DNA from: Odiellus spinosus
Lineage: Eukaryota > Arthropoda > Arachnida > Opiliones > Phalangiidae
Assembly: GCA_963920705.1 (NCBI GenBank)
Contig: CAWUCO010000291.1
Span: 868,001 to 932,000, forward strand
Direction of reading: 5' to 3'
Length of the DNA stretch: 64,000 bases
Below are positions 870-64,000 of the stretch, one piece after another (the stretch's first letter is position 1; each line of letters opens with the position of its first letter). A model generated the notes under the pieces. The model was not told the DNA's origin. It saw only the letters and a program-made list of their open reading frames with translations, and ran no database searches. A program made the translations under genes and the position numbers.

Positions 870-3800
870 TTTGTAGATCTGTACTTGTTAAATTTGTGGA
901 TCTACACTTGGGAAATTTGTGGATCTATACTTAGTATTTTTATTGATATATTCCTGGTAATTTGTGGACCTATACTTGGAAATTTGTGGATCTATACTTG
1001 GGAAATTTAGGGATCTATACTTGGGAAATTTGTGTATCTACTTTTTTAATTTGTGGGTCTAAGCTTGGGAAATTTGTGGATCTATACTTGGGAAATTAGT
1101 GGATCTATACTTGGGAAATTTGTGTATCTACTTTTTTTTATTTGTGGGTCTAAGCTTGGGAAATTTGTGGATCTATACTTGGGAAATTTGTGGATCTATA
1201 CTTGGTAAAATTGTGAGTCTTTAGTTGGAAATTTGTGGATATATACTTGGTAAATTTGTGGATCTATGCTTGGGATATTTGTGGTTCTATACTTGGGAAA
1301 TTTGTGGATCTATACTCATTATTTTTGTGGATCTATACTTAGTAAATATGTGGATTTATACTTGGTAAATATGTGGTTTTATACTTGGGAAATTTGAAGA
1401 TCTATACTTGTGAAATTTGAAGATCTATACTTGTGAAATTTTTGGATCTATAAATGGTAAATTTTTGAATCTATGCTTGGGATATTTGTGGATCTATGCT
1501 TGGGAATTTTTTGATATATTCTTGGTAATTTGTGGATCTATACTTGGAAATTTGTGGATCTATACTTGGGAAATTTGTGGATCTATGCTTGGGATATTTG
1601 TTGATCTATACTTGGGAAATTTGTGGCTCTACACTTCGAAAATTTGTTGATCTATGCTTGGGAAATTTGTGGATCTATACTAGGAAATTTGTGGATCTAT
1701 ACTTGGGAAATTTTAGGATCTATACTTGGGAAAATAGTGGATCTTTACTTGGGAAGCTTGTGGATCTATACTTGGGAAATTTGTGGATCTATACTTGGGA
1801 AATTTGTGTATCTACTTTTTTTAATTTGTGGGTGTATGCTTGGGAAATTTTTGGATCTATACTTGGGAAATTTGTGGATCTATACTTGGGATATATGTGG
1901 ATCTATACTTGAGAAATTTGTGAATCTATACTTGGTAAATTTGGATCTATGCTTGGGATATTTGTGGATCTATACTTGGGAAATTTGTGGATCTATTCTT
2001 GGTAAATTTGTGGATCTATGCTTGGGATATTTGTGGATCTATCCTTCGTAAATTTGTGGATCTATGCTTGGGAAATTTGTGGATCTATACTTGGGAAATT
2101 TGTAGATCTATACTTGGTAAATATGTGGATCTATGCTTGGGAAATTTGTGAATCTCTAATTGGTAAATTTGTGGATCTTTACATGGGAAATTTGTGGATA
2201 TATTCTTGGGAAATTTGTGTACATATTCTTGGGAAAATTGTGGATATATTCTTGGGATTTGTGGATCTTAACTTGGAAAATTTGTAGATCTGTACTTGTT
2301 AAATTTGTGGATCTATACTTGGGGGCAATTTGTGGATCTATACTTGGGGGAAATTTGTGGATCTATACTTGGAAAATTTGTGGATTTATACTTAGTATTT
2401 TTGTGGATCTATGCTTGGGAAATCTGTGGATCTATACTTGGGAAATTTGTGTATCTACTTTTTGAAATTTGTGGGTCTAAGCTTGGGAAAATTGTGGATC
2501 TATAATTGGGAAATTTGTGGATCTATACTTGGGAAATTTGTGTATCTCCTTTTTTTAATTTGTGGGTCTATGCTTGGGAAATATGTGGATCTATACTTGG
2601 GAAATTTGGGGCTCTACACTTCGAAAATTTATTGATCTATGCTTTTGAAATTTGTGGAGCTATACTTGGGAAATATTTTGATATATTCTTGGTAATTGGT
2701 GGATCTGTACTTGGTAAATTTGTGGATCTATGCTTGAGAAAAATGTGGATCTATATTTGGAAATTTATGGATATATACTTGGGGAATTTGTGGATCTATA
2801 CTTGGAAAATTTGTGGATCTATACTTAATATTTTTGTGGATCTATGCTTGGGATATATGTGGATCTATACTTGAGAAATTTGTGAATCTATACTTGGTAA
2901 ATTTGGATCTATGCTTGGGATATTTGTGGATCTATACTTGGAAAATTTGTGGATCTATTCTTGGTAAATATGTGGATCTATGCTTGGGAAATTTGTGAAT
3001 CTCTAATTGGTAAATTTTTGGATCTTTACATGGGAAATTTGTGGATATATTCTTGGGAAATTTGTGGATCTATGCTTGGGATATTTGTGGATCTATCCTT
3101 CGTAAATTTGTGGATCTATGCTTGGGAAATTTGTGGATCTATACTTGGTAAATATGTGGATCTATGCTTGGGAAATTTGTGAATCTCTAATTGGTAAATT
3201 TGTGGATATATTCTTGGGAAATTTGTGGATCTATTCTTGGTAAATTTGTGGATCTATGCTTGGGATATTTGTGGATCTATCCTTCGTAAATTTGTGGATC
3301 TATGCTTGGGAAATTTGTGGATCTATACTTGGGAAATTTGTGGATCTATACTTGGTAAATATGTGGATCTATGCTTGGGAAATTTGTGAATCTCTAATTG
3401 GTAAATTTGTGGATCTTTACATGGGAAATTTGTGGATATATTCTTGGGAAATTTGTGGACATATTCTTGGCAAATTTGTGGATATATTCTTGGGAAATTT
3501 GTGGATATATTCTTGGGATTTGTGGATCTTAACTTGGAAAATTTTTGGATCTATACTTGGGAAATTTGTGGATATATTCTTGGGTATTTTGTTGACCTAT
3601 ACTATGAAAATTTTTACATATATTCTTGGTTATTTTGTTGACCTATACTATGAAAATATTTGGATCTTTACTTGGGAATTTGTGGATCTATACTTGGGAA
3701 ATTGTGGATCTATAATTGGTAAATTTGTGGATCTATGCTTGGGAAATTTGTGGATCTATACTAGGGAAATTTGTGGATCTATACTTGGGAAATTTGTGGA

Positions 3801-4190
3801 TCTATACTTGGTAAATATGTGGATCTATGCTTAGGAAATTTGTGGATCTTTACTTGTGAAATTTGTGGATATATTGTTGGGAAATTTGTGGATATATTCT
3901 TGGGAAATTTGTGGATATATTCTTGGGAAATTTGTGGATATATTCTTGGGAAATTTGTGGATCTATTGGGAAATTTGTGGATCTATACTTGGGAAATTTG
4001 TGGATCTATACTTGGGAAATTTGTGGATATTCTTGGGTATTTTGTGGATCTTAACTTGGGAAATTTGTAGATCTATACTTGTTAAATTTGTGGATCTATA
4101 CTTGGAAATTTGTGGATCTATACTTGGGAAATTTGTGGATCTCTACTTGGTAAATTTGTTTATCTATACTTGGGAAAATTTTTGATATAT
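870..4190 (+). repeat. Edge block: heterogeneous monomers next to unique DNA
   Basis: This first 3.3 kb mixes nearly all monomer variants: canonical TATACTTGGG, TATGCTTGGG, T-run units (around 1,045, 1,131, 1,815, 2,457 and 2,549), GATATATTC units, CTATACTATGAAAA units (around 3,600-3,660) and 20-bp short units (around 3,961). Local order is irregular, although segments recur, such as the stretch with GTGAATCTCTAATTGG at about 2,145, 2,995, 3,180 and 3,390. Much of the block reappears at 15,003-17,800, offset about 13.8 kb at its start (1,532 versus 15,356) and about 13.4-13.7 kb near its end because of indels. Greater heterogeneity beside unique DNA is usual for satellite edges. Confidence 0.8.
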
Positions 4191-17800: not shown

Positions 17801-20800
17801 CTTGGCAATTTGTGGATCTATTCTTGGGAAATTTGTGGATCTATACTTGGGAAATTTGTGTATCTACTTTTTTTAATTTGTGGGTCAAAGCTTGGAAAAT
17901 TTGTGGATCTATACTTGGGAAATTTGTGGATTTATACTTGGGAAATTTGTGGATCTATACTTCGTAAATTTGTGGATTTATACTTGGGAAATTTGTGGAT
18001 CTATACTTCGTAAATTTGTGGATCTATGCTAGGGAAATTTGTGGATCTATACTTGAGAAATTTGTTGCTATATTCTTGTATATTTTGTGGACCTATACTA
18101 TGAAAATTTTTGGATCTTTACTTGGGAAATCTGTGGATATATACTTGGGAAATTTGTGGATCTATACTTGGTAAATTTGTGAATCTATGCTTGGGATATT
18201 TGTGGATCTATACTTGGTAAATTTGTGAATCTATGCTTGGGATATTTGTGGATCTATACTTGGGAACTTTTTTGATATATTCTTGGTAATTTGTGGATCT
18301 ATACTTGGAAATTTGTGGATCTATACTTGTGAAATTTTAGGATCTATAATTTTGAAATTAGTGGATCTTTACTTTGGAAATTTGACGATCTGTACTTGGG
18401 AGATTTGTGGACCTATACTTGGGAAATTTGTGGATCTATACTTGGGATATATGTGGATCTATACTTGGGAAATTTGTGGATCTATACTTGGGAAATTTGT
18501 GTATCTACTTTTTTTAATTTGTGGGTCTATGCTTGGGAAATTTGTGGATCTATACTTGGGATATTTGTGGATCTATACATGGGAAATTTGGGGCTCTACA
18601 CTTCGAAAATTTTTTGATCTATGCTTTTGAAATTTGTGGAGCTATACTTGGGATCTGTACTTGGAAAATTTGTGGATCTATGCTTGAGAAAAATGTGGAT
18701 CTATACTTGGAAAATTAGGGGATATATACTTGGGAAATTTGGGGATATCTATTTTTTTAATTTGAGGGTCTAAGCTTGGGAAATTTGTGGATCTACTTTT
18801 TTAATTTGTGGGTCTGAGCTTGGGAAATTTGTGGATCTATACTTGGGAAATTTGGGGCTCTACACTTCGAAAATTTATTGATCTATGCTTGGGAAATTTG
18901 TGGATCTATACTTTGGAAAATTTTTGATATATTCTTGGTAATTTGTGGATCTATACTTGGTAAATTTGTGGATCTATGCTTGAGAAAAATGTGGATCTAT
19001 AGTTGGGAAATTTGTGGATCTATACTTGGGAAATTTTAGGATCTATACTTTGGAAATTAGTGGATCTTTACTTGGGAAATTTGACGATCTGTACTTGGGA
19101 AAATTGTGGATCTATACTTGGGAAATTTGTAGATCTATACTTGGGAAATTTGTGGATCTATACTTGGGAAACTTGTGGATCTATACTTGGGAAATTTGTG
19201 GATCTATACTTGAGAAATTTGTGGATCTATACTTGAGAAATTTGTGGATCTATACTTGGGATATTTGTGGATCTATACTTGGGAAATTTGGGGCTCTACA
19301 CTTCGAAAATTTATTGATCTATGCTTGGGAAATTAGTGGATCTATACTTTGGAAATTTTTTGATATATTCTTGGTAATTTGTGGATCTATACTTGGTAAA
19401 TTTGTGGATCTATGCTTGAGAAAAATGTGGATCTATAGTTGGGAAATTAGTGGATCTTTACTTGGGAAATTTGACGATCTGTACTTGGGAAAATTGTGGA
19501 TCTATACTTGGGAAATTTGTGGATCTATACTTGGGAAATTTTTGGATCTATACTTGGGAAACTTGTGGATCTATACTTGGGAAATTTGTGGATCTATACT
19601 TGGGATATATGTGGATCTATACTTGAGAAATTTGTTGATATATTATTGGGTATTTTGTGGACCTATACTATGAAAATTTTTGGATCTTAACTTGGGAAAT
19701 TTGTGGATCTATACTTGGTAAATTTGTGAATCTATGCTTGGGATATTTGTGGATCTATACTTGGGAAATTTTTTGATATATTCTTGGTAATTTGTGGATC
19801 TATACTTGGGAAATTTTAGGATGTATACTTTTGAATTTAGTGGATCTTTACTTGGGAAATTTGACGATCTGTACTTGGGAAATTTGTGGATCTATACTTG
19901 GGAAATTTGTGGATCTATACTTGGGAAATTTGTGGATCTATACTTGGGAAATTTGTGGATCTATACTTGGGAAATTTGTGTATCTACTTTTTTAATTTGT
20001 GGGTCTAAGCTCGGGAAATTTGTGGATCTATACTTGGGAAATTTGTGGATCTATACTTGAGAAATTTGTGGATCTATACTTGGGATATTTGTGGATCTAT
20101 ACTTGGGAAATTTGGGGCTCTACACTTCGAAAATTTATTGATCTATGCTTGGGAAATTTGTGGATCTATACTTTGGAAATTTTTTGATATATTCTTGGTA
20201 ATTTGTGGATCCATACTTGGTAAATTTGTTTATCTATGCTTGAGAAAAATGTGGATCTATAGTTGTGAAATTTGTGGATCTATACTTGGGAAATTTTAGG
20301 ATCTATACTTTGGAAATTAGTGGATCTTTACTTGGGAAATTTGACGATCTTTACTTGGGAAAATTGTGGATCTATACTTGGGAAATTTGTAGATCTATAC
20401 TTGGGAAATTTGTGGATCTATACTTGGGAAATTTTTGGATCTATACTTGGGAAATTTTTGGATCTATACTTGGGAAATTTTTGGATCTATACTTGGGAAA
20501 CTTGTGGATCTATACTTGGGAAATTTGTGGATCTATACTTGGGATATATGTGGATCTATACTTGAGAAATTTGTGGATATATTATTGGGTATTTTGTGGA
20601 CCTATACTTTGAAAATTTTTGGATCTTAACTTGGGAAATTTGTGGATCTATACTTGGTAAATTTGTGAATCTATGCTTGGGATATATGTGGATCTATACT
20701 TGGGAAATTTTTTGATATATTCTTGGTAATTTGTGGATCTATACTTGGGAAATTTTAGGATGTATACTTTTGAAATTAGTGGATCTTTACTTGGGAAATT

Positions 20801-45001: not shown

Positions 45002-48000
45002 TCTACACTTCGAAAATTTTTTGATCTATGCTTTTGAAATTTGTGGAGCTATACTTGGGATCTGTACTTGGTAAATTTGTGGATCTATGCTTGAGAAAAA
45101 TGTGGATCTATATTTGGAAATTTATGGATATATACTTGGGAAATTTGTGGATCTATACTCGGAAAATTTTTGGATCTATACTTAGTATTTTTGTGGATCT
45201 ATGCTTGGGAAATTTGTGGATCTATACTTGGAAAATTAGGGGATATATACTTGGGAAATTTGGGGATATCTACTTTTTTAATTTGAGGGTCTAAGCTTGG
45301 GAAATTTGTGGATCTACTTTTTTAATTTGTGGGTCTGAGCTTGGGAAATTTGTGGATCTATACTTGGGAAATTTGGGGCTCTACACTTCGAAAATTTATT
45401 GATCTATGCTTGGGAAATTTGTGGATCTATACTTTGGAAAATTTTTGATATATTCTTGGTAATTTGTGGATCTATACTTGGTAAATTTGTGGATCTATGC
45501 TTGAGAAAAATGTGGATCTATAGTTGGGAAATTTGTGGATCTATACTTGGGAAATTTTAGGATCTATACTTTGGAAATTAGTGGATCTTTACTTGGGAAA
45601 TTTGACGATCTGTACTTGGGAAAATTGTGGATCTATACTTGGGAAATTTGTAGATCTATACTTGGGAAATTTGTGGATCTATACTTGGGAAACTTGTGGA
45701 TCTATACTTGGGAAATTTGTGGATCTATACTTGAGAAATTTGTGGATCTATACTTGAGAAATTTGTGGATCTATACTTGGGATATTTGTGGATATATACT
45801 TGGGAAATTTGGGGCTCTACACTTCGAAAATTTATTGATCTATGCTTGGGAAATTTGTGGATCTATACTTTGGAAAATTTTTGATATATTCTTGGTAATT
45901 TGTGGATCTATACTTGGTAAATTTGTGGATCTATGCTTGAGAAAAATGTGGATCTATAGTTGGGAAATTAGTGGATCTTTACTTGGGAAATTTGACGATC
46001 TGTACTTGGGAAAATTGTGGATCTATACTTGGGAAATTTGTGGATCTATACTTGGGAAATTTTTGGATCTATACTTGGGAAACTTGTGGATCTATACTTG
46101 GGAAATGTGTGGATCTATACTTGGGATATATGTGGATCTATACTTGAGAAATTTGTTGATATATTATTGGGTATTTTGTGGACCTATACTATGAAAATTT
46201 TTGGATCTTAACTTGGGAAATTTGTGGATCTATACTTGGTAAATTTGTGAATGTATGCTTGGGATATTTGTGGATCTATACTTGGGAAATTTTTTGATAT
46301 ATTCTTGGTAATTTGTGGATCTATACTTGGGAAATTTTAGGATGTATACTTTTGAAATTAGTGGATCTTTACTTGGGAAATTTGACGATCTGTACTTGGG
46401 AAATTTGTGGATCTATACTTGGGAAATTTGTGGATCTATACTTGGGAAATTTTTGGATCTATACTTGGGAAATTTGTGGATCTATACTTGGGAAATTTGT
46501 GGATCTATACTTGGGAAATTTGTGTATCTACTTTTTTAATTTGTGGGTCTAAGCTCGGGAAATTTGTGGATCTATACTTGGGAAATTTGTGGATCTATAC
46601 TTGGGAAATTTGTGGATCTATACTTGAGAAATTTGTGGATCTATACTTGGGATATTTGTGGATCTATACTTGGGAAATTTGGGGCTCTACACTTCGAAAA
46701 TTTATTGATCTATGCTTGGGAAATTTGTGGATCTATACTTTGGAAATTTTTTGATATATTCTTGGTAATTTGTGGATCCATACTTGGTAAATTTGTTTAT
46801 CTATGCTTGAGAAAAATGTGGATCTATAGTTGTGAAATTTGTGGATCTATACTTGGGAAATTTTAGGATCTATACTTTGGAAATTAGTGGATCTTTACTT
46901 GGGAAATTTGACGATCTTTACTTGGGAAAATTGTGGATCTATACTTGGGAAAATTGTGGATCTATACTTGGGAAATTTGTAGATCTATACTTGGGAAATT
47001 TGTGGATCTATACTTGGGAAATTTTTGGATCTATACTTGGGAAACTTGTGGATCTATACTTGGGAAATTTGTGGATCTATACTTTGGATATATGTGGATC
47101 TATACTTGAGAAATTTGTGGATATATTATTGGGTATTTTGTGGACCTATACTATGAAAATTTTTGGATCTTAACTTGGGAAATTTGTGGATCTATACTTG
47201 GTAAATTTGAGAATCTATGCTTGAGATATATGTGGATCTATACTTGGGAAATTTTTTGATATATTCTTGGTAATTTTTGGATCTAAACTTGGGAAATTTT
47301 AGGATGTATACTTTTGAAATTAGTGGATCTTTACTTGGGAAATTTGACGATCTGTACTTGGGAAATTTGTGGATCTATACTTGGGAAATTTTTGGTTCTA
47401 TACTTGGGAAATTTGTGGATCTATACTTGGGAAATTTGTGTATCTACTTTTTTAATTTGTGGGTCTAAGCTCAGGAAATTTGTGGATCTATACTTGGGAA
47501 ATTTGTGGATCTATACTTGAGAAATTTTTGGATCTATACTTGGGATATTTGTGGATCTATACTTGGGAAATTTGGGGCTCTACACTTCGAAAATTTATTG
47601 ATCTATGCTTGGGAAATTTGTGGATCTATACTTTGGAAATTTTTTGATATATTCTTGGTAATTTGTGGATCCATACTTGGTAAATTTGTTTATCTATGCT
47701 TGAGAAAAATGTGGATCTATAGTTGTGAAATTTGTGGATCTATACTTGGGAAATTTTAGGATCTATACTTTGGAAATTAGTGGATCTTTACTTGGGAAAT
47801 TTGACGATCTTTACTTGGGAAAATTGTGGATCTATACTTGGGAAATTTGTAGATCTATACTTGGGAAATTTGTGGATCTATACTTGGGAAATTTTTGGAT
47901 CTATACTTGGGAAGTTTTTGGATCTATACTTGGGAAACTTGTGGATCTATACTTGGGAAATTTGTGGATCTATACTTGGGATATATGTGGATCTATACTT

Positions 48001-51000
48001 GAGAAATTTGTGGATATATTATTGGGTATTTTGTGGACCTATACTTTGAAAATTTTTGGATCTTAACTTGGGAAATTTGTGGATCTATACTTGGTAAATT
48101 TGTGAATCTATGCTTGGGATATATGTGGATCTATACTTGGGAAATTTTTTGATATATTCTTGGTAATTTGTGGATCTATACTTGGGAAATTTTAGGATGT
48201 ATACTTTTGAAATTAGTGGATCTTTACTTGGGAAATTTGACGATCTGTACTTGGGAAATTTGACGATCTGTACTTGGGAAATTTGTGGATCTAAACTTGG
48301 GAAATTTGTGGATCTATACTGGGAAATTTTTGGATCTATACTTGGGAAATTTGTGGATCTATACTTGGGAAATTTGTGTATCTACTTTTTTAATTTGTTG
48401 GTCTAAGCTTGGGAAATTTGTGGATCTATACTTGGGAAATTTGTGGATCCATACTTGAGAAATTTGTGGATTTATACTTAGGATATTTGTGTATCTATAC
48501 TTGGGAAATTTGGGGCTCTACACTTCGAAAATTTATTGATCTATGCTTGGGAAATTTGTGGATCTATACTTGAGAAATTTGTTGCTATATTCTTGTATAT
48601 TTTGTGGACCTATACTATGAAAATTTTTGGATCTTTACTTGGGAAATCTTTGGATCTATAATTGGTAAATTTGTGGATCTATGCTTGGGAAATTTGTGGA
48701 TCTATACTTGTGAAATTTGTGAATCTATGCTTGGGATATTTGTGGATCTATACTTGGGAACTTTTTTGATATATTCTTGGTAATTTGTGGATCTATACTT
48801 GGAAATTTGTGGATCTATACTTGTGAAATTTTAGGAGATATAATTTTGAAATTAGTGGATCTTTACTTTGGAAATTTGTCGATCTGTACTTGGGAAATTT
48901 GTGGATCTATACTTGGGATATATGTGGATCTATACTTGGGAAATTTGTGTATCTATACTTGGGAAATTTGTGTATCTACTTTTTTTAATTTGTGGGTCTA
49001 TGCTTGGGAAATTTGTGGATCTATACTTGGGATATTTGTGGATCTATACTTGGGAAATTTGGGGCTCTACACTTCGAAAAGTTTTTGATCTATGCTTTTG
49101 AAATTTGTGGAGCTATACTTGGGATCTGTACTTGGTAAATTTGTGGATCTATGCTTGAGAAAAATGTGGATCTATATTTGGAAATTTATGGATATATACT
49201 TGGGAAATTTGTGGATCTATACTTGGAAAATTTTTGGATCTCTACTTAGTATTTTTGTGGATCTATGCTTGGGAAATTTGTGGATCTATACTTGGGAAAT
49301 TAGGGGATATATACTTAGGAAATTTGGGGATATCTACTTTTTTAATTTGTGGGTCTAAGCTTGGGAAATTTGTGGATCTACTTTTTTAATTTGTGGGTCT
49401 AAGATTGGGAAATTTGTGGATCTATACTTGGGAAATTGTGGATCTATACTTGAGAAATTTGTGGATCTATACTTGGGATATTTGTGGATCTATACTTGGG
49501 AAATTTGGGGCTCTACACTTCGAAAATTTATTGATCTATGCTTGGGAAATTTGTGGATCTATACTTGGTAAATTTGTGGATCTATGCTTGAGAAAAATGT
49601 GGATCTATAGTTGGGAAATTTGTGGATCTTTACTTGGAAATTTTAGGATCTATACTTTGGAAATTAGTGGATCTTTACTTGGGAAATTTGACGATCTGTA
49701 CTTGGGAAAATTGTGGATCTATACTTGGGAAATTTGTAGATCTATACTTGGGAAATTTGTGTATCTATACTTGGGAAACTTGTGGATCTATACTTGGGAT
49801 ATATGTGGATCTGTACTTGAAAAATTTGTGGATATATTATTGGGTATTTTGTGGACCTATACTATGAAAATTTTTGGATCTTAACTTGGGAAATTTGTGG
49901 ATCTATACTTGGTAAATTTGTGAATCTATGCTTGAGATATATGTGGATCTATACTTGGGAAATTTTTTGATATATTCTTGGTAATTTTTGGATCTAAACT
50001 TGGGAAATTTTAGGATGTATACTTTTGAAATTAGTGGATCTTTACTTGGGAAATTTGACGATCTGTACTTGGGAAATTTGTGGATCTATACTTGGGAAAT
50101 TTTTGGTTCTATACTTGGGAAATTTGTGGATCTATACTTGGGAAATTTGTGGATCTATACTTGTGAAATTTGTGGATCTATACTTGGGAAATTTGTGTAT
50201 CTACTTTTTTAATTTGTGGGTCTAAGCTCGGGAAATTTGTGGATCTCTACTTGAGAAATTTGTGGATCTATACTTGGGATATTTGTGGATCTATACTTGG
50301 GAAATTTGGGGCTCTACACTTCGAAAATTTATTGATCTATGCTTGGGAAATTTGTGGATCTATACTTTGGAAATTTTTTGATATATTCTTGGTAATTTGT
50401 GGATCTATATTTGGTAAATTTGTTTATCTATGCTTGAGAAAAATGTGGATCTATATTTGGGAAATTTGTGGATCTATACTTGGGAAATTTTAGGATCTAT
50501 ACTTTGGAAATTAGTGGATCTTTACTTATGAAATTTTTGGATCTATACTTGGGAAATTTTAGGATCTATACTTGGGAAACTTGTGGATCTATACTTGGGA
50601 AATTTGTGGATCTATACTTGGGATATATGTGGATCTATACTTGAGAAATTTGTGGATATATTATTGGGTATTTTGTGGACCTATACTATGAAAATTTTTG
50701 GATCTTAACTTGGGAAATTTGTGGATCTATACTTGAGAAATTTGTGGATATATAATTGGGTATTTTGTGTACCTATACTATGAAAATTTTTGGATCTTAA
50801 CTTGGGAAATTTGTGGATCTATACTTGGTAAATTTGTGAATCTATGCTTGGGATATTTGTGGATCTATACTTGGGAAATTTTTTGATATATTCTTGGTAA
50901 TTTGTGGATCTATACTTGGGAAATTTTAGGATGTATACTTTTGAAATTAGTGGATCTTTACTTGGGAAATTTGACGATCTGTACTTGGGAAATTTGTGGA

Positions 51001-53883
51001 TCTATACTTGGGAAATTTGTGGATCTATACTTGGGAAATTTTTGGATCTATACTTGGGAAATTTGTGGATCTATACTTGTGAAATTTGTGGATCTATACT
51101 TGGGAAATTTGTGTATCTACTTTTTTAATTTGTGGGTCTAAGCTCGGGAAATTTGTGGATCTATACTTGGGAAATTTGTGGATCTATACTTGAGAAATTT
51201 GTGGATCTATACTTGGGATATTTGTGGATCTATACTTGGGAAATTTGGGGCTCTACACTTCGAAAATTTATTGATCTATGCTTGGGAAATTTGTGGATCT
51301 ATACTTTGGAAATTTTTTGATATATTCTTGGTAATTTGTGGATCTATATTTGGTAAATTTGTTTATCTATGCTTGAGAAAAATGTGGATCTATATTTGGG
51401 AAATTTGTGGATCTATACTTGGGAAATTTTAGGATCTATACTTTGGAAATTAGTGGATCTTTACTTGGGAAAATTGTGGATCTATACTTGGGAAATTTGT
51501 AGATCTATACTTGGGAAATTTGTGGATCTATACTTGGGAAATTTTTGGATCTAATCTTGGGAAATTTTAGGATCTATACTTGGGAAACTTGTGGATCTAT
51601 ACTTGGGAAATTTGTGGATCTATACTTGGGATATATGTGGATCTATACTTGAGAAATTTGTGGATATATTATTGGGTATTTTGTGGACCTATACTATGAA
51701 AATTTTTGGATCTTAACTTGGGAAATTTGTGGATCTATACTTGGTAAATTTGTGAATCTATGCTTGGGATATATGTGGATCTATACTTGGGAAATTTTTT
51801 GATATATTCTTGGTAATTTGTGGATCTACACTTGGGAAATTTTAGGATGTATACTTTTGAAATTAGTTGATCTTTACTTGGGAAATTTGACGATCTGTAC
51901 TTGGGAAATTTGTGGATCTATACTTGGGAAATTTGTGGATCTATACTTGGGAAATTTTTGGATCTATACTTGGGAAATTTGTGGATCTATACCTGGGAAA
52001 TTTGTGTATCTACTTTTTTAATTTGTGGGTCTAAGCTTGGGAAATTTGTGGATCTATACTTGGGAAATTTGTGGATCTATACTTGAGAAATTTGTGGATC
52101 TATACTTGGGATATTTGTGGATCTATACTTGGGAAATTTGGGGCTCTACACTTCGAAAATTTATTGATCTATGCTTGGGAAATTTGTGGATCTATACTTT
52201 GGAAATTTTTTGATATATTCTTGGTAATTTGTGGATCTATACTTGGTAAATTTGTTTATCTATGCTTGAGAAAAATGTGGATCTATAGTTGGGAAATTTG
52301 TGGATCTATACTTGGGAAATTTTAGGATCTATACTTTGGAAATTAGTGGATCTTTACTTGGGAAATTTGAAGATCTTTACTTGGGAAAATTGCTGATCTA
52401 TACTTGGGAAATTTGTAGATCTATACTTGGGAAATTTGTGGATCTATACTTGGGAAATTTTTGGATCTATACTTGGGAAACTTGTGGATCTATACTTGGG
52501 AAATTTGTGGATCTATACTTGGGATATATGTGGATCTATACTTGAGAAATTTGTGGATATATTATTGGGTATTTTGTGGACCTATACTATGAAAATTTTT
52601 GGATCTTAACTTGGGAAATTTGTGGATATATACTTGGTAAATTTGTGAATCTATGCTTGGGATATATGTGGATCTATACTTGGAAAATTTTTTGATATAT
52701 TCTTGGTAATTTGTGGATCTACACTTGGGAAATTTTAGGATGTATACTTTTGAAATTAGTGGATCTTTACTTGGGAAATTTGTGGATCTATACTTGGGAA
52801 ATTTGTGTATCTACTTTTTTAATTTGTTGGTCTAAGCTTGGGAAATTTGTGGATCTATACTTGGGAAATTTATGGATCTATACTTGAGAAATTTGTGGAT
52901 CTATACTTAGGATATTTGTGGATCTATACTTGGGAAATTTGGGGCTCTACACTTCGAAAATTTATTGATCTATGCTTGGGAAATTTGTGGATCTATACTT
53001 GGTAAATTTGTGGATCTATACTTGAGAAAAATGTGGATCTATAGTTGGGAAATTTGTGGATCTATACTTGGGAAATTTTAGGATCTATACTTTGGAAAAT
53101 AGTGGATCTTTACTTGGGAAATTTGACGATCTGTACTTGGGAAAATTGTGGATCTATACTTGGGAAATTTGTAGATCTATACTTGGGAAATTTGTGGATC
53201 TATACTTGGTAAATTTGTGAATCTATGCTTGGGATATATGTGGATCTATACTTGGGAAATTTTTTGATATATTCTTGGTAATTTGTGGATCTATACTTGG
53301 GAAATTTGAGGATGTATACTTTTGAAATTAGTGGATCTTTACTTGGGAAATTTGACGATCTGTACTTGGGAAATTTGTGGATCTATACTTGGGAAATTTG
53401 TGGATCTATACTTGGGAAATTTTTGGATCTATACTTGGGAAATTTTTGGATCTATACTTGGGAAATTTGTGGATCTATACTTGGGAAATTTGTGTATCTA
53501 CTTTTTTAATTTGTTGGTCTAAGCTTGGGAAATTTGTGGATCTATACTTGGGAAATTTGTGGATCTATACTTGAGAAATTTGTGGATCTATACTTAGGAT
53601 ATTTGTGGATCTATACTTGGGAAATTTGGGGCTCTACACTTCGAAAATTTATTGATCTATGCTTGGGAAATTTGTGGATCTATACTTTGGAAATTTTTTG
53701 ATATATTCTTGGTAATTTGTGGATCTATACTTGGTAAATTTGTGGATCTATGCTTGAGAAAAATGTGGATCTATAGTTGGGAAATTTGTGGATCTATACT
53801 TGGGAAATTTTAGGATCTATACTTTGGAAATTAGTGGATCTTTACTTGGGAAATTTGACGATCTGTACTTGGGAAAATTGTGG
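45002..53883 (+). repeat. ACACTTCG higher-order domain, second copy
   Basis: Markers at 45,383, 45,819, 46,689, 47,582, 48,520, 49,515, 50,316, 51,255, 52,148, 52,949 and 53,636 give unit lengths of 436, 870, 893, 938, 995, 801, 939, 893, 801 and 687 bp. This follows the series of the first copy with units gained or lost. Alignment offsets are 26,521 at 19,003, 27,437 at 20,733, 26,397 at 23,225 and 26,374 from 24,530 to 27,003. It ends near 53,883, where CTTGGGAAAATTGTGG joins ATCTTAACTTGGG. Confidence 0.9.
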
Positions 53884-54313
53884 ATCTTAACTTGGGAAAT
53901 TTGTGGATCTATACTTGGGAAATTTGTGGATCTATACTTGGGATATATGTGGATCTATACTTGAGAAATTTGTGGATATATTATTGGGTATTTTGTGGAC
54001 CTATACTATGAAAATTTTTGGATCTTAACTTGGGAAATTTGTGGATCTATACTTGGTAAATTTGTGAATCTATGCTTGGGATATATGTGGATCTATACTT
54101 GGGAAAGTTTTTGATATATTCTTGGTAATTTGTGGATCTATACTTGGGAAATTTTAGGATGTATACTTTTGAAATTAGTGGATCTTTACTTGGGAAATTT
54201 GACGATCTGTATTGGGAAATATGTGGATCAATACTTGGGAAATTTGTGGATCTATACTTGGGAAATTTTTGGATCTATACTTGGGAAATTTGTGGATCTA
54301 TACTTGGGAAATT
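53884..54313 (+). repeat. Short piece of the 2.1-2.65-kb unit
   Basis: The stretch 53,884-54,313 aligns with 33,860-34,289 at a constant shift of 20,024 bp (54,130 with 34,106). It includes the GATCTGTATTGGGAAATATG unit at about 54,207. It is cut at both ends: on the left by the ACACTTCG domain and on the right by the homogeneous domain, where TTTGAGGATCTATGCTGCGG begins at 54,312. Confidence 0.83.
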
Positions 54314-57300
54314 TGAGGATCTATGCTGCGGAAATTTGTGGATCTATGCTTGGGAAATTTGTGGATCTATGCTTGGTAAATTTGTGGATCTATGCTTGGG
54401 AAATTTGTGGATCTATGCTTGGGAAATTTGTGGATCTATGCTTGGGTAATTTGTGGATCTATGCTTGGGAAATTTGTAAATCTATGCTTGGGAAATTTGA
54501 GGATCTATGCTTTTGAAATTAGTGGATCTATACATGGTAAATTTGAGGATCTATGCTTGGGAAATTTGTGGATCTATACTTGGTAAATTTGTGGATCTAT
54601 GCTTGGGAAATTTGTGGATCTATGCTTGGAAAATTTGTGGATCTATACTTAGGAAATTTGAGGATCTATGCTGCGGAAATTTGTGGATCTATGCTTGGGA
54701 CATTTGTGGATATATGCTTGGGAAATTTGTGGATCTATATTTGGGAAATTAGTGGATCTATACATGCTAATTTGAGGATCTATGCTTGGGAAATTTGTGG
54801 ATCTATGCTTGGAAAATTTGTGGATCTATGCTTGGGAAATTAGTGGATCTATACATGGTAAATTTGAGGATCTATGCTTGGGAAATTTGTGGATCTATAC
54901 TTGGTAAATTTGTGGATCTATGCTTGGGAAATATGTGGATCTATGCTTGGAAAATTTGTGGATCTATACTTAGGACATTTGAGGATCTATGCTGCGGAAA
55001 TTTTTGGATCTATGCTTGGGAAATTTGTGGATCTATGCTTGGAAAATTTGTGGATCTATACTTGGGAAATTTGAGGATCTATGCTGCGGAAATTTGTGGA
55101 TCTATGCTTGGGAAATTTGTGGATCTATGCTTGGTAAATTTGTGGATCTATGCTTGGGAAATTTGTGGATCTATGCTTGGGAAATTTGTAAATCTATGCT
55201 TGGGAAATTTGAGGATCTATGCTTGGGAAATTAGTGGATCTATACATGGTAAATTTGAGGATCTAAGCTTGGGAAATTTGTGGATCTATACTTGGTAAAT
55301 TTGTGGATCTATGCTTGGGAAATTTGTGGATCTATGCTTGGAAAATTTGTGGATCTATACTTAGGAAATTTGAGGATCTATGCTGCGGAAATTTGTGGAT
55401 CTATGCTTGGGACATTTGTGGATATATGTTTGGGAAATGTTGTGGATCTATATTTGGGAAATTAGTGGATCTATACATGCTAATTTGAGGATCTATGCTT
55501 GGGAAATTTGTGGATCTATGCTTGGAAAATTTGTGGATCTATACTTGGGAAATTTGAGGATCTATGCTTGGGAAATTTGTGGATCTATGCTTGGGAAATT
55601 TGTGGATCTATGCTTTAGAAATTTGTGGATCTATACTTCGTTAATTTGTGGATCTATGCTTGGGAAATTAGTGGATCTATACTTGGTAAATTTGTGGATC
55701 TATACTTTGGAAATTTGAGGATCTATGCTGCGGAAATTTGTGGATCTATGCTTGGGAAATTTGTGGATCTATGCTTGGGAAATTTGTGGGGCTATGCTTG
55801 GGAAATTTGTGGATCTATGCTTGGGTAATTTGTGGATCTATGCTTGGGAAATTTGTGGATCTATGCTTGGGAAATTAGTGGATCTATACATGGTAAATTT
55901 GAGGATCTATGCTTGGGAAATTTGTGGATCTATACTTGGTAAATTTGTGGATCTATGCTTGGGAAATTTGTGGATCTATGCTTGGAAAATTTGTGGATCT
56001 ATACTTAGGACATTTGAGGATCTATGCTGCGGAAATTTTTGGATCTATACTTGGTAAATTTGTGGATCTATACTTTGGAAATTTGAGGATCTATGCTGCG
56101 GAAATTTGTGGATCTATGCTTGGGAAATTTGGATCTATGCTTGGGAAATTTGTGGATCTATGCTTGGGGAATTTGTGGATCTATGCTTGGGAAATTTGTG
56201 GATCTATGCTTGGGTAATTTGTGGATCTATGCTTGGGAAATTTGTGGATCTATGCTTGGGAAATTAGTGGATCTATACATGGTAAATTTGAGGATCTATG
56301 CTTGGGAAATTTGTGGATCTATTCTTGGTAAATTTGTGGATCTATGCTTGGGAAATTTGTGGATCTATGCTTGGGAAATTTGTGGATCTATGCTTGGAAA
56401 ATTTGTGGATCTATACTTAGGACATTTGAGGATCTATGCTGCGGAAATTTTTGGATCTATACATGGTAAATTTGAGGATCTATGCTTGGGAAATTTGTGG
56501 ATCTATTCTTGGTAAATTTGTGGATCTATGCTTGGGAAATTTGTGGATCTATGCTTGGAAAATTTGTGGATCTATACTTGGGAAATTTGTGGATCTATGC
56601 TTGGTAAATTTGTGGATCTATGCTTATGAAATTTGTGGATCTATGCTTGGGAAATTTGTGGATCTATGCTTGGGTAATTTGTGGATCTATGCTTTAGAAA
56701 TTTGTGGATCTATGCTTGGGAAATTAGTGGATTTATACTTGGTAAATTTGTGGATCTATACTTTGGAAATTTGAGGATCTATGCTGCGGAAATTTGTGGA
56801 TCTATGCTTGGGAAATTTGTGGATCTATGCTTGGGAAATTTGTGGGTCTATGCTTGGGGAATTTGTGGATCTATGCTTGGGAAATTTGTGGATCTATGCT
56901 TGGGTAATTTGTGGATCTATGCTTGGGAAATTTGTGGATCTATGCTTGGGAAATTAGTGGATCTATACATGGTAAATTTGAGGATCTATGCTTGGGAAAT
57001 TTGTGGATCTATACTTGGTAAATTTGTGGATCTATGCTTGGGAAATTTGTGGATCTATGCTTGGAAAATTTGTGGATCTATACTTAGGACATTTGAGGAT
57101 CTATGCTGCGGAAATTTTTGGATCTATACTTGGTAAATTTGTGGATCTATACTTTGGAAATTTGAGGATCTATGCTGCGGAAATTTGTGGATCTATGCTT
57201 GGGAAATTTGGATCTATGCTTGGGAAATTTGTGGATCTATGCTTGGGGAATTTGTGGATCTGTGCTTGGGAAATTTGTGGATCTATGCTTGGGTAATTTG

Positions 57301-60300
57301 TGGATCTATGCTTGGGAAATTTGTGGATCTATGCTTGGGAAATTAGTGGAACTATACATGGTAAATTTGAGGATCTATGCTTGGGAAATTTGTGGATCTA
57401 TTCTTGGTAAATTTGTGGATCTATGCTTGGTAAATTTGTGGATCTATGCTTGGGAAATTTGTGGATCTATGCTTGGAAAATTTGTGGATCTATGCTAGGG
57501 AAATTTGTGGATCTATACTAGGGAAATTTGTGGATCTATACTTGAGAAATTTGTTGATATAATCTTGTATATTTTGTGGACCTATACTATGAAAATTTTT
57601 GGATCTTTACTTGGGAAATTTGTGGATCTATACTTGGTAAATTTGTGGATCTATGCTTGGGATATTTGTGGTTTAATACTTGGGAAATTTGTGGATCTAT
57701 ACTTATTTTTTTGTGGGTGTATGCTTGGGAAATTTGTGGATCTATACTTGGTAAATATGTGGATCTATGCTTGGGAAATTTGTGGATCTTTACTTGTGAA
57801 ATTTGTGGATATATTCTTGGGAAATTTGTGGATATATTCTTTAGAAATTTGTGGATCTATTGGGAAATTTGTGGATCTATACTTTTGAAATTTGTGGATC
57901 TATACTTGGGAAATTTGTGGATATTCTTGGGTATTTTGTGGATCTTAACTTGGGAAATTTGTAGATCTATACTTGTTAAATTTGTGGATCTATACTTGGG
58001 AAATTTGTGGATCTATACTTGGTAAATTTGTGGATCTATACTTGTTAAATTTGTGGATCTATACTTGGGAAATTTGTGGATCTATACTTGGTAAATTTGT
58101 GGATCTATGCTTGGGATATTTGTGGATCTATACTTGGGAAATTTGTGGATCTATACTTGGGAAATTTTTTGATATATTCTTGGTAATTTGTGGATCTATG
58201 CTTGGGATATTTGTGGATCTATACTTGGGAAATTTGTGGATATATTCTTGGGTATTTTGTGGATATATTCTTGGGTATTTTGTGGACCTATACTATGAAA
58301 ATTTTTGGATCTTAACTTGGGAAATTTGTGGATCTATACTTGGGAAATTTGTAGATCTATACTTGGTAAATTTGTGGATCTATGCTTGGGATATTTGTGG
58401 ATTTATACTTGGGAAATTTGTGGATCTATACTTAGTAAATATGTGGATCTATACTTGGTAAATATGTGGTTTTTACTTGGGAAATTTGTGTATATACTTT
58501 TTTTTAATTTGTGGGTCTATGCTTGGGAAATTTGTGGATCTATACTTGGGAAATTGTTTATATATTCTTGGGAAATTTGTGGATCTATACTTGGGAAATT
58601 TTTTGATATATTCTTGGTAATTTGTGGATCTATACTATGTAAATTTGTTGATCTATGCTTGAGAAAAATGTGGATCTATAGTTGGGAAATTGGTTTATCT
58701 ATACTTGGGAAATTTTAGGATCTATACTTGGGAAATTAGTGGATCTTTACTTGGGAAATTTGACGATCTGTTCTTGGGAAATTTGTGGATCTATACTTGG
58801 GAAATTTGTGGATCTATACTTGGGAAATTTGTGGATCTATACTTGGGAAGTTTGTGGATCTATGCTTGGGAAGTTTGTGGATCTATGCTTGGGAAGTTTG
58901 TGGATCTATGCTTGGGAAATTTGTGGATCTATGCTTTAGAAATTTGTGGATCTATACTTCGTTAATTTGTGGATCTATGCTTGGGAAATTAGTGGATCTA
59001 TACTTGGTAAATTTGTGGATCTATGCTTGGGAAATTTGTGGATCTATGCTTGGAAAATTTGTGGATCTATACTTTGGAAATTTGAGGATCTATGCTGCGG
59101 AAATTTGTGGATCTATGCTTGGGAAATTTGTGGATCTATGCTTGGGAAATTTGTGGACCTATGCTTGGGAAATTTGTGGATCTATGCTTGGGAAATTTGT
59201 GGATCTATGCTTAGGTAATTTGTGGATCTATGCTTGGGAAATTTGTGGATCTATGCTTGGGAAATTAGTGGATCTATACATGGTAAATTTGAGGATCTAT
59301 GCTTGGGAAATTTGTGGATCTATACTTGGTAAATTTGTGGATCTATGCTTGGGAAATTTGTGGATCTATGCTTGGGAAATTTGTGGATCTATGCTTGGAA
59401 AATTTGTGGATCTATACTTAGGACATTTGAGGATCTATGCTGCGGAAATTTTTGGATCTATGCTTGGGAAATTTGTGGATCTATGCTTGGAAAATTTGTG
59501 GATCTATACTTGGGAAATTTGAGGATCTATGCTGCGGAAATTTGTGGATCTATGCTTGGTAAATTTGTGGATCTATGCTTGGGAAATTTGTGGATCTATG
59601 CTTGGGAAATTTGTGGATCTATGCTTGGGTAATTTGTGGATCTATGCTTGGGAAATTTGTAAATCTATGCTTGGGAAATTTGAGGATCTATGCTTGGGAA
59701 ATTAGTGGATCTGTACATGGTAAATTTGAGGATCTATGCTTGGGAAATTTGTGGATTTATACTTGGTAAATTTGTGGATCTATGCTTGGTAAATTTGTGG
59801 ATCTATGCTTGGGAAATTTGAGGATCTATGCTGCGGAAATTTGTGGATCTATGCTTGGGAAATTTATGGATCTATGCTTGGGAAATTTGTGGACCTATGC
59901 TTGGGAAATTTGTGGATCTATGCTTGGGAAATTTGTGGATCTATGCTTGGGTAATTTGTGGATCTATGCTTGGGAAATTTGTGGATCTATGCTTGGGAAA
60001 TTAGTGGATCTATACATGGTAAATTTGAGGATCTATGCTTGGGAAATTTGTGGATCTATACTTGGTAAATTTGTGGATCTATGCTTGGGAAATATGTGGA
60101 TCTATGCTTGGAAAATTTGTGGATCTATACTTAGGACATTTGAGGATCTACACTTCGAAAATTTTTTGATCTATGCTTTTGAAATTTGTGGAGCTATACT
60201 TGGGATCTGTACTTGGTAAATTTGTGGATCTATGCTTGAGAAAAATGTGGATCTATATTTGGAAATTTATGGATATATACTTGGGAAATTTGTGGATCTA

Positions 60301-63300
60301 TACTCGGAAAATTTTTGGATCTATACTTAGTATTTTTGTGGATCTATGCTTGGGAAATTTGTGGATCTATACTTGGAAAATTAGGGGATATATACTTGGG
60401 AAATTTGGGGATATCTACTTTTTTAATTTGAGGGTCTAAGCTTGGGAAATTTGTGGATCTACTTTTTAAATTTGTGGGTCTGAGCTTGGGAAATTTGTGG
60501 ATCTATACTTGGGAAATTTGGGGCTCTACACTTCGAAAATTTATTGATCTATGCTTGGGAAATTTGTGGATCTATACTTTGGAAAATTTTTGATATATTC
60601 TTGGTAATTTGTGGATCTATACTTGGTAAATTTGTGGATCTATGCTTGAGAAAAATGTGGATCTATAGTTGGGAAATTTGTGGATCTATACTTGGGAAAT
60701 TTTAGGATCTATACTTTGGAAATTAGTGGATCTTTACTTGGGAAATTTGACGATCTGTACTTGGGAAAATTGTGGATCTATACTTGGGAAATTTGTAGAT
60801 CTATACTTGGGAAATTTGTGGATCTATACTTGGGAAACTTGTGGATCTATACTTGGGAAATTTGTGGATCTATACTTGAGAAATTTGTGGATCTATACTT
60901 GAGAAATTTGTGGATCTATACTTGGGATATTTGTGGATCTATACTTGGGAAATTTGGGGCTCTACACTTCGAAAATTTATTGATCTATGCTTGGGAAATT
61001 TGTGGATCTATACTTTGGAAAATTTTTGATATATTCTTGGTAATTTGTGGATCTATACTTGGTAAATTTGTGGATCTATGCTTGAGAAAAATGTGGATCT
61101 ATAGTTGGGAAATTAGTGGATCTTTACTTGGGAAATTTGACGATCTGTACTTGGGAAAATTGTGGATCTATACTTGGGAAATTTGTGGATCTATACTTGG
61201 GAAATTTTTGGATCTATACTTGGGAAACTTGTGGATCTATACTTGGGAAATTTGTGGATCTATACTTGGGATATATGTGGATCTATACTTGAGAAATTTG
61301 TTGATATATTATTGGGTATTTTGTGGACCTATACTATGAAAATTTTTGGATCTTAACTTGGGAAATTTGTGGATCTATACTTGGTAAATTTGTGAATGTA
61401 TGCTTGGGATATTTGTGGATCTATACTTGGGAAATTTTTTGATATATTCTTGGTAATTTGTGGATCTATACTTGGGAAATTTTAGGATGTATACTTTTGA
61501 AATTAGTGGATCTTTACTTGGGAAATTTGACGATCTGTACTTGGGAAATTTGTGGATCTATACTTGGGAAATTTGTGGATCTATACTTGGGAAATTTTTG
61601 GATCTATACTTGGGAAATTTGTGGATCTATACTTGGGAAATTTGTGGATCTATACTTGGGAAATTTGTGTATCTACTTTTTTAATTTGTGGGTCTAAGCT
61701 CGGGAAATTTGTGGATCTATACTTGGGAAATTTGTGGATCTATACTTGGGAAATTTGTGGATCTATAGTTGAGAAATTTGTGGATCTATACTTGGGATAT
61801 TTGTGGATCTATACTTGGGAAATTTGGGGCTCTACACTTCGAAAATTTATTGATCTATGCTTGGGAAATTTGTGGATCTATACTTTGGAAATTTTTTGAT
61901 ATATTCTTGGTAATTTGTGGATCCATACTTGGTAAATTTGTTTATCTATGCTTGAGAAAAATGTGGATCTATAGTTGTGAAATTTGTGGATCTATACTTG
62001 GGAAATTTTAGGATCTATACTTTGGAAATTAGTGGATCTTTACTTGGGAAATTTGACGATCTTTACTTGGGAAAATTGTGGATCTATACTTGGGAAATTT
62101 GTAGATCTATACTTGGGAAATTTGTGGATCTATACTTGGGAAATTTTTGGATCTATACTTGGGAAGTTTTTGGATCTATACTTGGGAAACTTGTGGATCT
62201 ATACTTGGGAAATTTGTGGATCTATACTTGGGATATATGTGGATCTATACTTGAGAAATTTGTGGATATATTATTGGGTATTTTGTGGACCTATACTTTG
62301 AAAATTTTTGGATCTTAACTTGGGAAATTTGTGGATCTATACTTGGTAAATTTGTGAATCTATGCTTGGGATATATGTGGATCTATACTTGGGAAATTTT
62401 TTGATATATTCTTGGTAATTTGTGGATCTATACTTGGGAAATTTTAGGATGTATACTTTTGAAATTAGTGGATCTTTACTTGGGAAATTTGACGATCTGT
62501 ACTTGGGAAATTTGACGATCTGTACTTGGGAAATTTGTGGATCTAAACTTGGGAAATTTGTGGATCTATACTGGGAAATTTTTGGATCTATACTTGGGAA
62601 ATTTGTGGATCTATACTTGGGAAATTTGTGTATCTACTTTTTTAATTTGTTGGTCTAAGCTTGGGAAATTTGTGGATCTATACTTGGGAAATTTGTGGAT
62701 CTATACTTGAGAAATTTGTGGATTTATACTTAGGATATTTGTGTATCTATACTTGGGAAATTTGGGGCTCTACACTTCGAAAATTTATTGATCTATGCTT
62801 GGGAAATTTGTGGATCTATACTTGAGAAATTTGTTGCTATATTCTTGTATATTTTGTGGACCTATACTATGAAAATTTTTGGATCTTTACTTGGGAAATC
62901 TTTGGATCTATAATTGGTAAATTTGTGGATCTATGCTTGGGAAATTTGTGGATCTATACTTGTGAAATTTGTGAATCTATGCTTGGGATATTTGTGGATC
63001 TATACTTGGGAACTTTTTTGATATATTCTTGGTAATTTGTGGATCTATACTTGGAAATTTGTGGATCTATACTTGTGAAATTTTAGGAGATATAATTTTG
63101 AAATTAGTGGATCTTTACTTTGGAAATTTGTCGATCTGTACTTGGGAAATTTGTGGATCTATACTTGGGATATATGTGGATCTATACTTGGGAAATTTGT
63201 GTATCTATACTTGGGAAATTTGTGTATCTACTTTTTTTAATTTGTGGGTCTATGCTTGGGAAATTTGTGGATCTATACTTGGGATATTTGTGGATCTATA

Positions 63301-64000
63301 CTTGGGAAATTTGGGGCTCTACACTTCGAAAAGTTTTTGATCTATGCTTTTGAAATTTGTGGAGCTATACTTGGGATCTGTACTTGGTAAATTTGTGGAT
63401 CTATGCTTGAGAAAAATGTGGATCTATATTTGGAAATTTATGGATATATACTTGGGAAATTTGTGGATCTATACTTGGAAAATTTTTGGATCTCTACTTA
63501 GTATTTTTGTGGATCTATGCTTGGGAAATTTGTGGATCTATACTTGGGAAATTAGGGGATATATACTTAGGAAATTTGGGGATATCTACTTTTTTAATTT
63601 GTGGGTCTAAGCTTGGGAAATTTGTGGATCTACTTTTTTAATTTGTGGGTCTAAGATTGGGAAATTTGTGGATCTATACTTGGGAAATTGTGGATCTATA
63701 CTTGAGAAATTTGTGGATCTATACTTGGGATATTTGTGGATCTATACTTGGGAAATTTGGGGCTCTACACTTCGAAAATTTATTGATCTATGCTTGGGAA
63801 ATTTGTGGATCTATACTTTGGAAATTTTTTGATATATTCTTTTTAATTTGTGGATCTATACTTGGTAAATTTGTGGATCTATGCTTGAGAAAAATGTGGA
63901 TCTATAGTTGGGAAATATGTGGATCTTTACTTGGAAATTTTAGGATCTATACTTTGGAAATTAGTGGATCTTTACTTGGGAAATTTGACGATCTGTACTT
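54314..64000 (+). repeat. 15.2-kb superunit, copy 2 (cut by the window end)
   Basis: This repeats 39,121-49,750. Its components are homogeneous monomers to 57,492, the inserted block at 57,493-58,681, homogeneous monomers at 58,682-60,146, then the ACACTTCG domain. Compared with copy 1 it lacks two monomers near 56,580, keeps 43 bp lost from copy 1 near 42,690, lacks three monomers near 58,530, has one extra monomer near 58,810, and lacks one 893-bp unit near 62,000. Single-base differences are sparse, for example GGATCCATACTTGAG at about 48,446 against GGATCTATACTTGAG here. Confidence 0.9.
60147..64000 (+). repeat. ACACTTCG higher-order domain, third copy (incomplete)
   Basis: The domain is entered through the same hybrid monomer as at 45,001. 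Markers at 60,528, 60,964, 61,834, 62,772 and 63,767 give units of 436, 870, 938 and 995 bp. The second copy reads 436, 870, 893, 938, 995, so exactly the 893-bp unit is missing. The window ends inside a TTTGACGATCTGTACTT monomer, so the domain continues beyond 64,000. Confidence 0.9.

What the first reader, a model, noticed from the sequence alone, without database searches (positions are those of the whole stretch)
870..64000. Three-tier satellite: 23 bp, 0.3-2.6 kb and about 15 kb
A 23-bp monomer is built into higher-order units of 297 bp to 2.6 kb, and these are built into a superunit of about 15.2 kb that is itself repeated head to tail. Nested tiers are known from alpha-satellite centromeres, but there the monomer is about 171 bp. 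Three tiers on so short a monomer over more than 63 kb is unusual to me and may be undescribed. A centromeric or heterochromatic role is inference only.
Basis: partly seen in the sequence, partly recalled or inferred. Interest (0 to 1): 0.75.

Follow-up and report, generated by a model that had tools for sequence, protein, structure and literature searches.

The report
Harvestman 23-bp satellite with irregular nesting
This is a real, large block of highly repetitive DNA from a harvestman, built from a 23-letter unit whose bigger "tiers" look like irregular leftovers of many random duplications; such DNA is ordinary, though I found no description of this particular family.

Summary
The array is real: 870-64000 is one uninterrupted 23-bp satellite (2,765 monomers, 89% aligned identity to consensus). 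The window comes from the harvestman Odiellus spinosus, scaffold C282. The exact monomer occurs 68,192 times genome-wide, roughly 11 Mb or 2.4%. Blocks were seen on chromosomes 2, 8 and 14 and on six scaffolds that are not chromosomes; chromosome 1 appears to have none.

The three-tier reading holds only in part. Kilobase units exist, but their lengths vary from place to place; the longest regular run is 3 copies in the window and 4 in 153 kb. The 15.2-kb superunit is one head-to-tail pair (39,093 and 54,286; 20 mismatches in 9,961 aligned bases), with no colinear third copy in the next 90 kb. Copy distances form a continuum from 0.2 to about 110 kb. A one-process simulation reproduces much, not all, of this. 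Best reading: pericentromeric-type heterochromatin shaped by unequal exchange over a wide range of sizes. A universal centromere satellite is disfavoured. New member of a known kind.

The parts
1..869 (+). 3' part of a DNA transposon lying in the array (island C282: about 866.4-868.87 kb): last 80 codons of a 514-aa DDE_Tnp_4 reading frame (1-243) and a tail with no long frame
   Evidence: island between two arrays; uninterrupted 514-aa frame running from L009 into the window; PF13359 DDE_Tnp_4, E 8.2e-19
870..64000 (+). 23-bp satellite array, no interruption in the window, continuing to at least C282:1,022,000
18694..28483 (+). segment related to 45.2-54.1 kb (lags 26521, 27437, 26442, 26397, 26374, 25573; blocks 98.8-100% identical)
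21072..23084 (+). 995-bp (44-monomer) unit, 2.0 ungapped tandem copies; a 12-monomer probe recurs three times
26863..28898 (+). 801-bp (35-monomer) unit, 2.3 ungapped tandem copies
30058..35493 (+). 2.2-2.6 kb unit, three successive probe positions, length-variable
39093..54285 (+). 15.2-kb superunit, copy 1
54286..64000 (+). 15.2-kb superunit, copy 2 (can be followed in pieces beyond the window to about 70.7 kb)

Best explanation
A non-coding major satellite of the harvestman Odiellus spinosus. It forms large heterochromatin-type blocks, probably pericentromeric, on some chromosomes. The 23-bp unit is amplified and homogenised locally by out-of-register exchange between sister chromatids (or break-induced replication), which doubles or deletes segments from a few monomers up to tens of kilobases. 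Each event leaves a two-copy unit; later events fall inside or across it, so the array looks nested. The kilobase 'higher-order repeats' and the 15.2-kb 'superunit' are different-sized outcomes of one process, not separate functional tiers. Shown: array, copy structure, genome distribution, a scaffold-specific subfamily. Inferred: recombination mechanism, heterochromatin state, pericentromeric position.
For: Copy lags fill every class from under 250 bp to over 64 kb (up to 111 kb). Eleven ungapped tandem units in 153 kb have eleven different lengths and 1.9-2.3 copies each; with indels the longest regular run is 4. Simulation, 18 settings with 8 runs each: maximum tandem copies have medians of 2.0-2.1. 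With event sizes capped at 3 kb the amount of copy at lags of 1,600 monomers or more is 0; capped at 16 kb its median is 0-0.35; capped at 69 kb, 0.29-1.84; observed 0.85. The A14G subfamily in runs of five has 44 of 44 genome matches on this scaffold, all +. Blocks lie on chromosomes 2, 8 and 14, and on chromosome 2 next to 18-bp and 26-bp arrays. Harvestmen usually have monocentric chromosomes, and Phalangiidae show heteropycnotic blocks at centromeres (passages of PMC5904373). Rfam at gathering thresholds: 0 matches.
Against: In the settings with sizes above 3 kb the median longest uninterrupted copy is 227-813 monomers (single runs 69-1,511); observed 128. The commonest monomer makes up 11.7% of the array, against 0.1-2.5% in the first simulation. 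Observed diversity (0.095 distinct monomers per monomer) fits only a few settings. Settings were tried, not fitted. The chromosome 14 block is near one end (0.30-0.40 Mb). No chromatin, expression or FISH data were available, and centromere positions in this assembly are unknown to me.
Confidence: 0.65

Rival explanations
1. The satellite is the functional centromere DNA, with the nested units as true HORs like alpha-satellite.
For: Large arrays; one block seen on each of three chromosomes; copies over 99% identical while random monomers are 84% identical, the classic HOR contrast.
Against: The ordered list of exact monomers starts at C2:27,091,156, so C1 and the first 27.09 Mb of C2 appear to have none. 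Among chromosomes, only 2, 8 and 14 of 16 appear in three run or variant searches; the lists were cut, but only within C72 and C137, so if ordered they cover the chromosomes. Units are not regular: at most 3-4 copies.
Confidence: 0.12
2. The 15.2-kb pair is an assembly artefact (two haplotypes or an error placed head to tail) and the third tier does not exist.
For: Scaffold outside the 16 chromosomes in a satellite-rich region; DNA was sheared to 12-20 kb on average (PMC11503004), about the length of the unit; curation removed 5 haplotypic duplications.
Against: The copies differ by 20 substitutions and by length changes of 43-46 bp and 893 bp, so reads could tell them apart. A related segment lies 25.6-27.4 kb upstream, and many other long-lag copies exist in 153 kb.
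Confidence: 0.15
3. The array is a protein-coding or RNA-coding repeat, because the + strand consensus has no stop codon.
For: 98 open frames of at least 100 aa, all on +; the 69-bp triple monomer reads open in every frame (direct reading of the consensus).
Against: The longest frame is 287 aa in 63 kb; common monomer variants create stops (two TTTGAGG variants make up 77 monomers); Rfam gives nothing.
Confidence: 0.03

Closest known systems
Ruminant satellite I (bovine 1.715; cervid/muntjac satellite IA)
   Same: Short internal unit (31 bp) diverged inside a longer repeated unit of about 0.9-1 kb; passages seen in PMC2760882 and PMC7835801.
   Different: There the longer unit is regular and repeated many times (copy number recalled); here lengths vary and runs are 2-4 copies. 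No sequence relation was tested.
Bovine 1.706 satellite (recalled: 23-bp prototype inside a 2.35-kb unit; Pech et al. 1979)
   Same: Same monomer length and two nested levels, if my recollection is right.
   Different: Recalled only: my library search for it returned 0 papers. Unrelated animal; regular long unit.
Human alpha-satellite higher-order repeats (recalled)
   Same: Monomers differ more within a unit than units differ from each other.
   Different: Monomer 23 bp, not 171 bp; no long run of one fixed unit in the 153 kb examined; apparently not on every chromosome.
Tribolium macro-dyad satellites (PMC13081366, abstract and passages)
   Same: Megabase satellite regions in which array orientation switches: here on C149 (4 switches among 16 array samples), C2 and C160.
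   Different: Monomer about 110 bp there, with inverted subarrays of kilobases to tens of kilobases; here switches are seen only by sparse sampling, the junctions were not read, and the 11 array samples of C282 are all +.

Membership tests
Satellite DNA (long, abundant, tandem, non-coding) | Long uninterrupted head-to-tail arrays | tested here: met
   63.1 kb in the window and 153 kb contiguous without interruption
Satellite DNA (long, abundant, tandem, non-coding) | High genome copy number | tested here: met
   68,192 exact 23-mers, reversed-pattern control 0
Satellite DNA (long, abundant, tandem, non-coding) | Heterochromatic state | not testable with these tools
   No chromatin data; cytology of other Phalangiidae genera only
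Higher-order repeat array (alpha-satellite sense) | Multi-monomer unit with inter-unit identity well above monomer identity | tested here: met
   The 70 reported copy pairs are over 93% identical, many over 99%; random monomers 84%
Higher-order repeat array (alpha-satellite sense) | Many successive copies of one unit of fixed length | tested here: not met
   Longest regular run 3 in the window, 4 in 153 kb, for units up to about 7 kb; eleven ungapped tandem units of eleven lengths
Centromere satellite of the species | Present on every chromosome | tested here: not met
   The ordered list of exact monomers has none on C1 = chromosome 1; diverged subfamilies there are not excluded
Centromere satellite of the species | Bound by CENH3 | not testable with these tools
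   Needs ChIP
Telomeric repeat | Found at chromosome ends | tested here: not met
   Right ends of C1 and C2 carry TTAGG; the satellite on C2 is internal, from 27.09 Mb
Macro-dyad satellite organisation (Tribolium) | Arrays change orientation around inversion sites | tested here: inconclusive
   Orientation differs between samples on C149, C2 and C160; no junction sequence was read; 11 of 11 array samples on C282 are +

The most novel reading that the evidence does not exclude
In this harvestman the pericentromeres are a mosaic of several short satellites (14, 18, 22, 23, 26 and 31 bp seen in samples), each expanding by duplication with no preferred size. Alternating orientation of the 23-bp arrays over hundreds of kilobases would be a macro-dyad-like architecture outside Tribolium, possibly marking centromeres on a subset of chromosomes.
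Probability: 0.15. Interest if true: 0.5.

Novelty: new member of a known kind. Interest (0 to 1): 0.3.

Why it matters
I found no description of this satellite: 0 papers hold the exact 23-mer, the titles listed for harvestman/Opiliones and satellite terms name none (15 of 1,851 papers listed, 15 of 191), and the genome note's text has no 'satellite' or 'repeat'. It gives a concrete probe for harvestman cytogenetics. It is also a case in which apparent nested tiers can be compared with a single random-duplication process, useful for reading HOR claims in new long-read assemblies.

Tried and rejected
Rejected: a regular three-tier hierarchy; telomere repeat; coding repeat; structured RNA or hairpin DNA (four strands folded, z-scores -0.65 to 1.26; Rfam 0 matches). 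A viral-contig scan for the 23-mer gave 0. Pfam on the 80-aa window fragment gave 0 families; the full frame gave DDE_Tnp_4, and HTH_Tnp_4 just under its cut-off. Literature: the exact 23-mer 0 papers, a four-term minisatellite search 0, bovine 1.706 search 0; two searches for the assembly by its size found no fitting paper. A first chain analysis was flawed: it let a block align to itself, so I discarded it. An array-against-array BLAST timed out and was replaced by a k-mer comparison. The first simulation (2 runs per setting) was followed.

On checking, I withdrew an earlier idea that the 18.7-28.5 kb copy is older than the 15.2-kb pair: its blocks are as similar.

Full report
Source. The genome search places the window at C282:868,001-932,000 of a 443,074,358-base genome with 286 contigs. 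Contig C286 (16,074 bp) carries COX1 readable with the invertebrate mitochondrial code. A genome note with a 16.07-kb mitochondrion (search listing) proved to be that of Odiellus spinosus, a harvestman. I read the first two of four parts of its text and passages. Its longest scaffold is 35,433,943 bp, exactly the length of C1, and chromosomes 2, 3, 4, 8 and 14 match C2, C3, C4, C8 and C16 in length. C282 (2,575,000 bp) is not one of the 16 chromosomes.

Tier 1. TRF and a wraparound decomposition agree on a 23-bp unit from 870 to the window's end: 2,765 monomers, 2,460 of exactly 23 bp, 426 distinct sequences, 89.4% aligned identity to the consensus; 307 exact copies on +, 0 on -. The array continues to at least 1,022,000 on the scaffold without interruption. 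Another piece runs from about 850 to 866.4 kb, and more lies from about 532 to 538 kb and from 541 to at least 585 kb; samples at 600-800 kb, 1.12-1.20 Mb and 2.1-2.56 Mb are also array.

Tier 2. Ungapped comparison from exact 50-base seeds finds 70 pairs of at least 600 bp and over 93% identity in the window. On monomer labels, 535 blocks of at least 10 monomers were found in 868,870-1,022,000, 85 of them wholly inside the window, and 80% of the window's array has a partner in it. Eleven blocks are tandem (length at least 0.9 of the lag), with units of 207, 801, 870, 995, 1051, 1125, 1281, 1527, 1690, 2558 and 2944 bp and 1.9-2.3 copies. Allowing indels and looking up to about 7 kb ahead, the longest regular run is 4. 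With 30-monomer probes this occurs at one place (2.47-2.56 kb unit, window coordinates 98.9-108.5 kb); with 12-monomer probes also near 66-77, 115-125 and 144-151 kb. All of these are outside the window; inside it the longest run is 3. Unit lengths therefore do not define a tier.

Tier 3. 39,093-49,566 matches 54,286-63,818 in five ungapped blocks: 4 mismatches of 2,304; 0 of 1,266; 0 of 635; 15 of 3,718; 1 of 2,038, in all 20 of 9,961. Two neighbouring blocks overlap slightly and 517 bases of copy 1 fall between blocks, so the figure leans low. The lags step by 43-46 bp (about two monomers) and by 893 bp. Beyond the window, 51,085-52,501 matches 69,301-70,717, after repeated segments between 64 and 69 kb, so the second copy can be followed in pieces that far. 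Later matches to this region (86-88 kb and 90-92 kb) are in changed order, so in blocks of at least 1 kb there is no colinear third copy up to 154 kb. Blocks of 18.7-28.5 kb match 45.2-54.1 kb at lags of 25.6-27.4 kb with 98.8-100% identity, as close as the 15.2-kb pair. The superunit is one duplication in an array full of duplications of other sizes.

Model. A simulation with one process (random tandem duplication or deletion, sizes log-uniform, plus new variants) was run for 18 settings, 8 runs each. The amount of copy at lags of 1,600 monomers or more was 0 in settings capped at 130 monomers (3 kb), had medians of 0-0.35 when capped at 700 (16 kb), and 0.29-1.84 when capped at 3,000 (69 kb); observed 0.85. 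Medians of the largest tandem copy number were 2.0-2.1 (single runs up to 3.1); observed 2.3. Coverage medians were 0.07-0.60 with the 3-kb cap and 0.30-0.96 otherwise; observed 0.83. Against the model: the observed longest uninterrupted block (128 monomers) is shorter than the medians of the settings above 3 kb (227-813; lowest single run 69). The dominance of one monomer (11.7%) was not reproduced (0.1-2.5%). The observed diversity fits few settings. The model is exploratory and was not fitted.

Genome distribution. The exact monomer occurs 48,529 times forward and 19,663 reverse, 0 for the reversed control. The list, which appears to be in contig order, begins at C2:27,091,156, so C1 appears to have none; L029 shows the array edge there. 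Runs of 8 consensus monomers: 32 places, C2 2, C21 12, C72 16, C149 2. Runs of 6: 286 places; the cut list shows C2, C8, C16, C21 and C72. A TTTTTGG variant in runs of 4: 1,273 places; the cut list shows C2, C16, C21 and C137. The A14G variant in runs of 5: 44 of 44 on C282, 631.6-1,243.3 kb. C160 carries the satellite too. In 300-base samples, 11 of 21 on C282, 7 of 21 on C2 and 16 of 21 on C149 are this satellite. C149 samples switch orientation four times, C2 and C160 samples once; the C282 ones do not. Exact copies occur at 6.3 per kb in 47 array samples (89 in 14.1 kb), giving about 10.8 Mb, 2.4% of the assembly. This is rough, since the samples were chosen, not random.

Function. I favour structural, pericentromeric-type heterochromatin. 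Blocks lie on chromosome 2 (27.09 to at least 27.86 Mb of 34.5), chromosome 8 (2.60-3.04 Mb of 20.4) and chromosome 14 (0.30-0.40 Mb of 15.9, near one end) by samples and lists. On chromosome 2 they adjoin 18-bp and 26-bp arrays. Phalangiidae chromosomes show condensed blocks at centromeres (passages of PMC5904373); the word Odiellus does not occur in that paper's text. Chromosome 1 apparently lacks the exact monomer, which argues against a universal centromere repeat, though diverged forms are not excluded.

Known context. Repeat periodicity arising from unequal crossover without selection is Smith's model, as summarised in a review (passages of PMC8122249). Short internal units inside kilobase repeats are known in ruminant satellite I. 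The claim that nesting on so short a monomer may be undescribed is therefore not supported as a kind. For the family itself I found no description in the searches (15 of 32 listed; 15 of 1,851 listed; 15 of 191 listed); these show listings only, and most subscription papers are not held.

Noticed in passing
C282: about 866.4-868.87 kb (L009 8400-10000 and window 1-869): A DNA transposon with an uninterrupted 514-aa DDE_Tnp_4 frame lies inside the array. C282:538,585-541,506 matches 866,434-869,355 at 99.1%, including about 485 bp of satellite on the right; on the left the other copy runs on in non-satellite sequence. Probably transposon and flank were duplicated together over 328 kb.
   Followed up: partly
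window 870-64000: The + strand consensus has no stop codon in any frame (69-bp cycle), which explains why all 98 open frames of at least 100 aa are on +; strong strand asymmetry (GC skew 0.41-0.53 per kb in the array).
   Followed up: partly
window 37000-42000, 44000-45000, 55000-57000, 59000-60000: Blocks of higher G+C (0.36-0.37 against about 0.32), repeated with the 15.2-kb duplication.
   Followed up: partly
C2:28.0-28.4 Mb, C2:28.7 Mb, C282:100 kb, C282:1.7-1.9 Mb, C282:1, C17:1 (samples L036, L051, L052, L064-L067, L112, L113): Other short tandem repeats (14, 18, 22, 26 and 31 bp by best self-lag or a multiple of it) occupy sampled regions near these arrays and elsewhere; harvestman heterochromatin may be a mosaic of short satellites.
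   Followed up: partly
C149, C160, C2 (samples): The 23-bp arrays change orientation over tens to hundreds of kilobases; the junctions were not read.
   Followed up: no
C282:562-575 kb (L025, L026): Three 1-kb bins show a small share (6-10%) of reverse-strand array 12-mers beside the + strand ones.
   Followed up: no
C17 (chromosome 15) 1.1-4.4 Mb: Nine COX1-like matches (two of them overlapping), probably mitochondrial insertions in the nucleus.
   Followed up: no
L032 (mitochondrial contig C286): The COX2 frame begins directly after COX1 with no room for a tRNA between them, the non-pancrustacean arrangement (recalled), in line with an arachnid.
   Followed up: partly
C1, several internal places: Short runs of TTAGG inside chromosome 1 besides the long run near its right end.
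   Followed up: no
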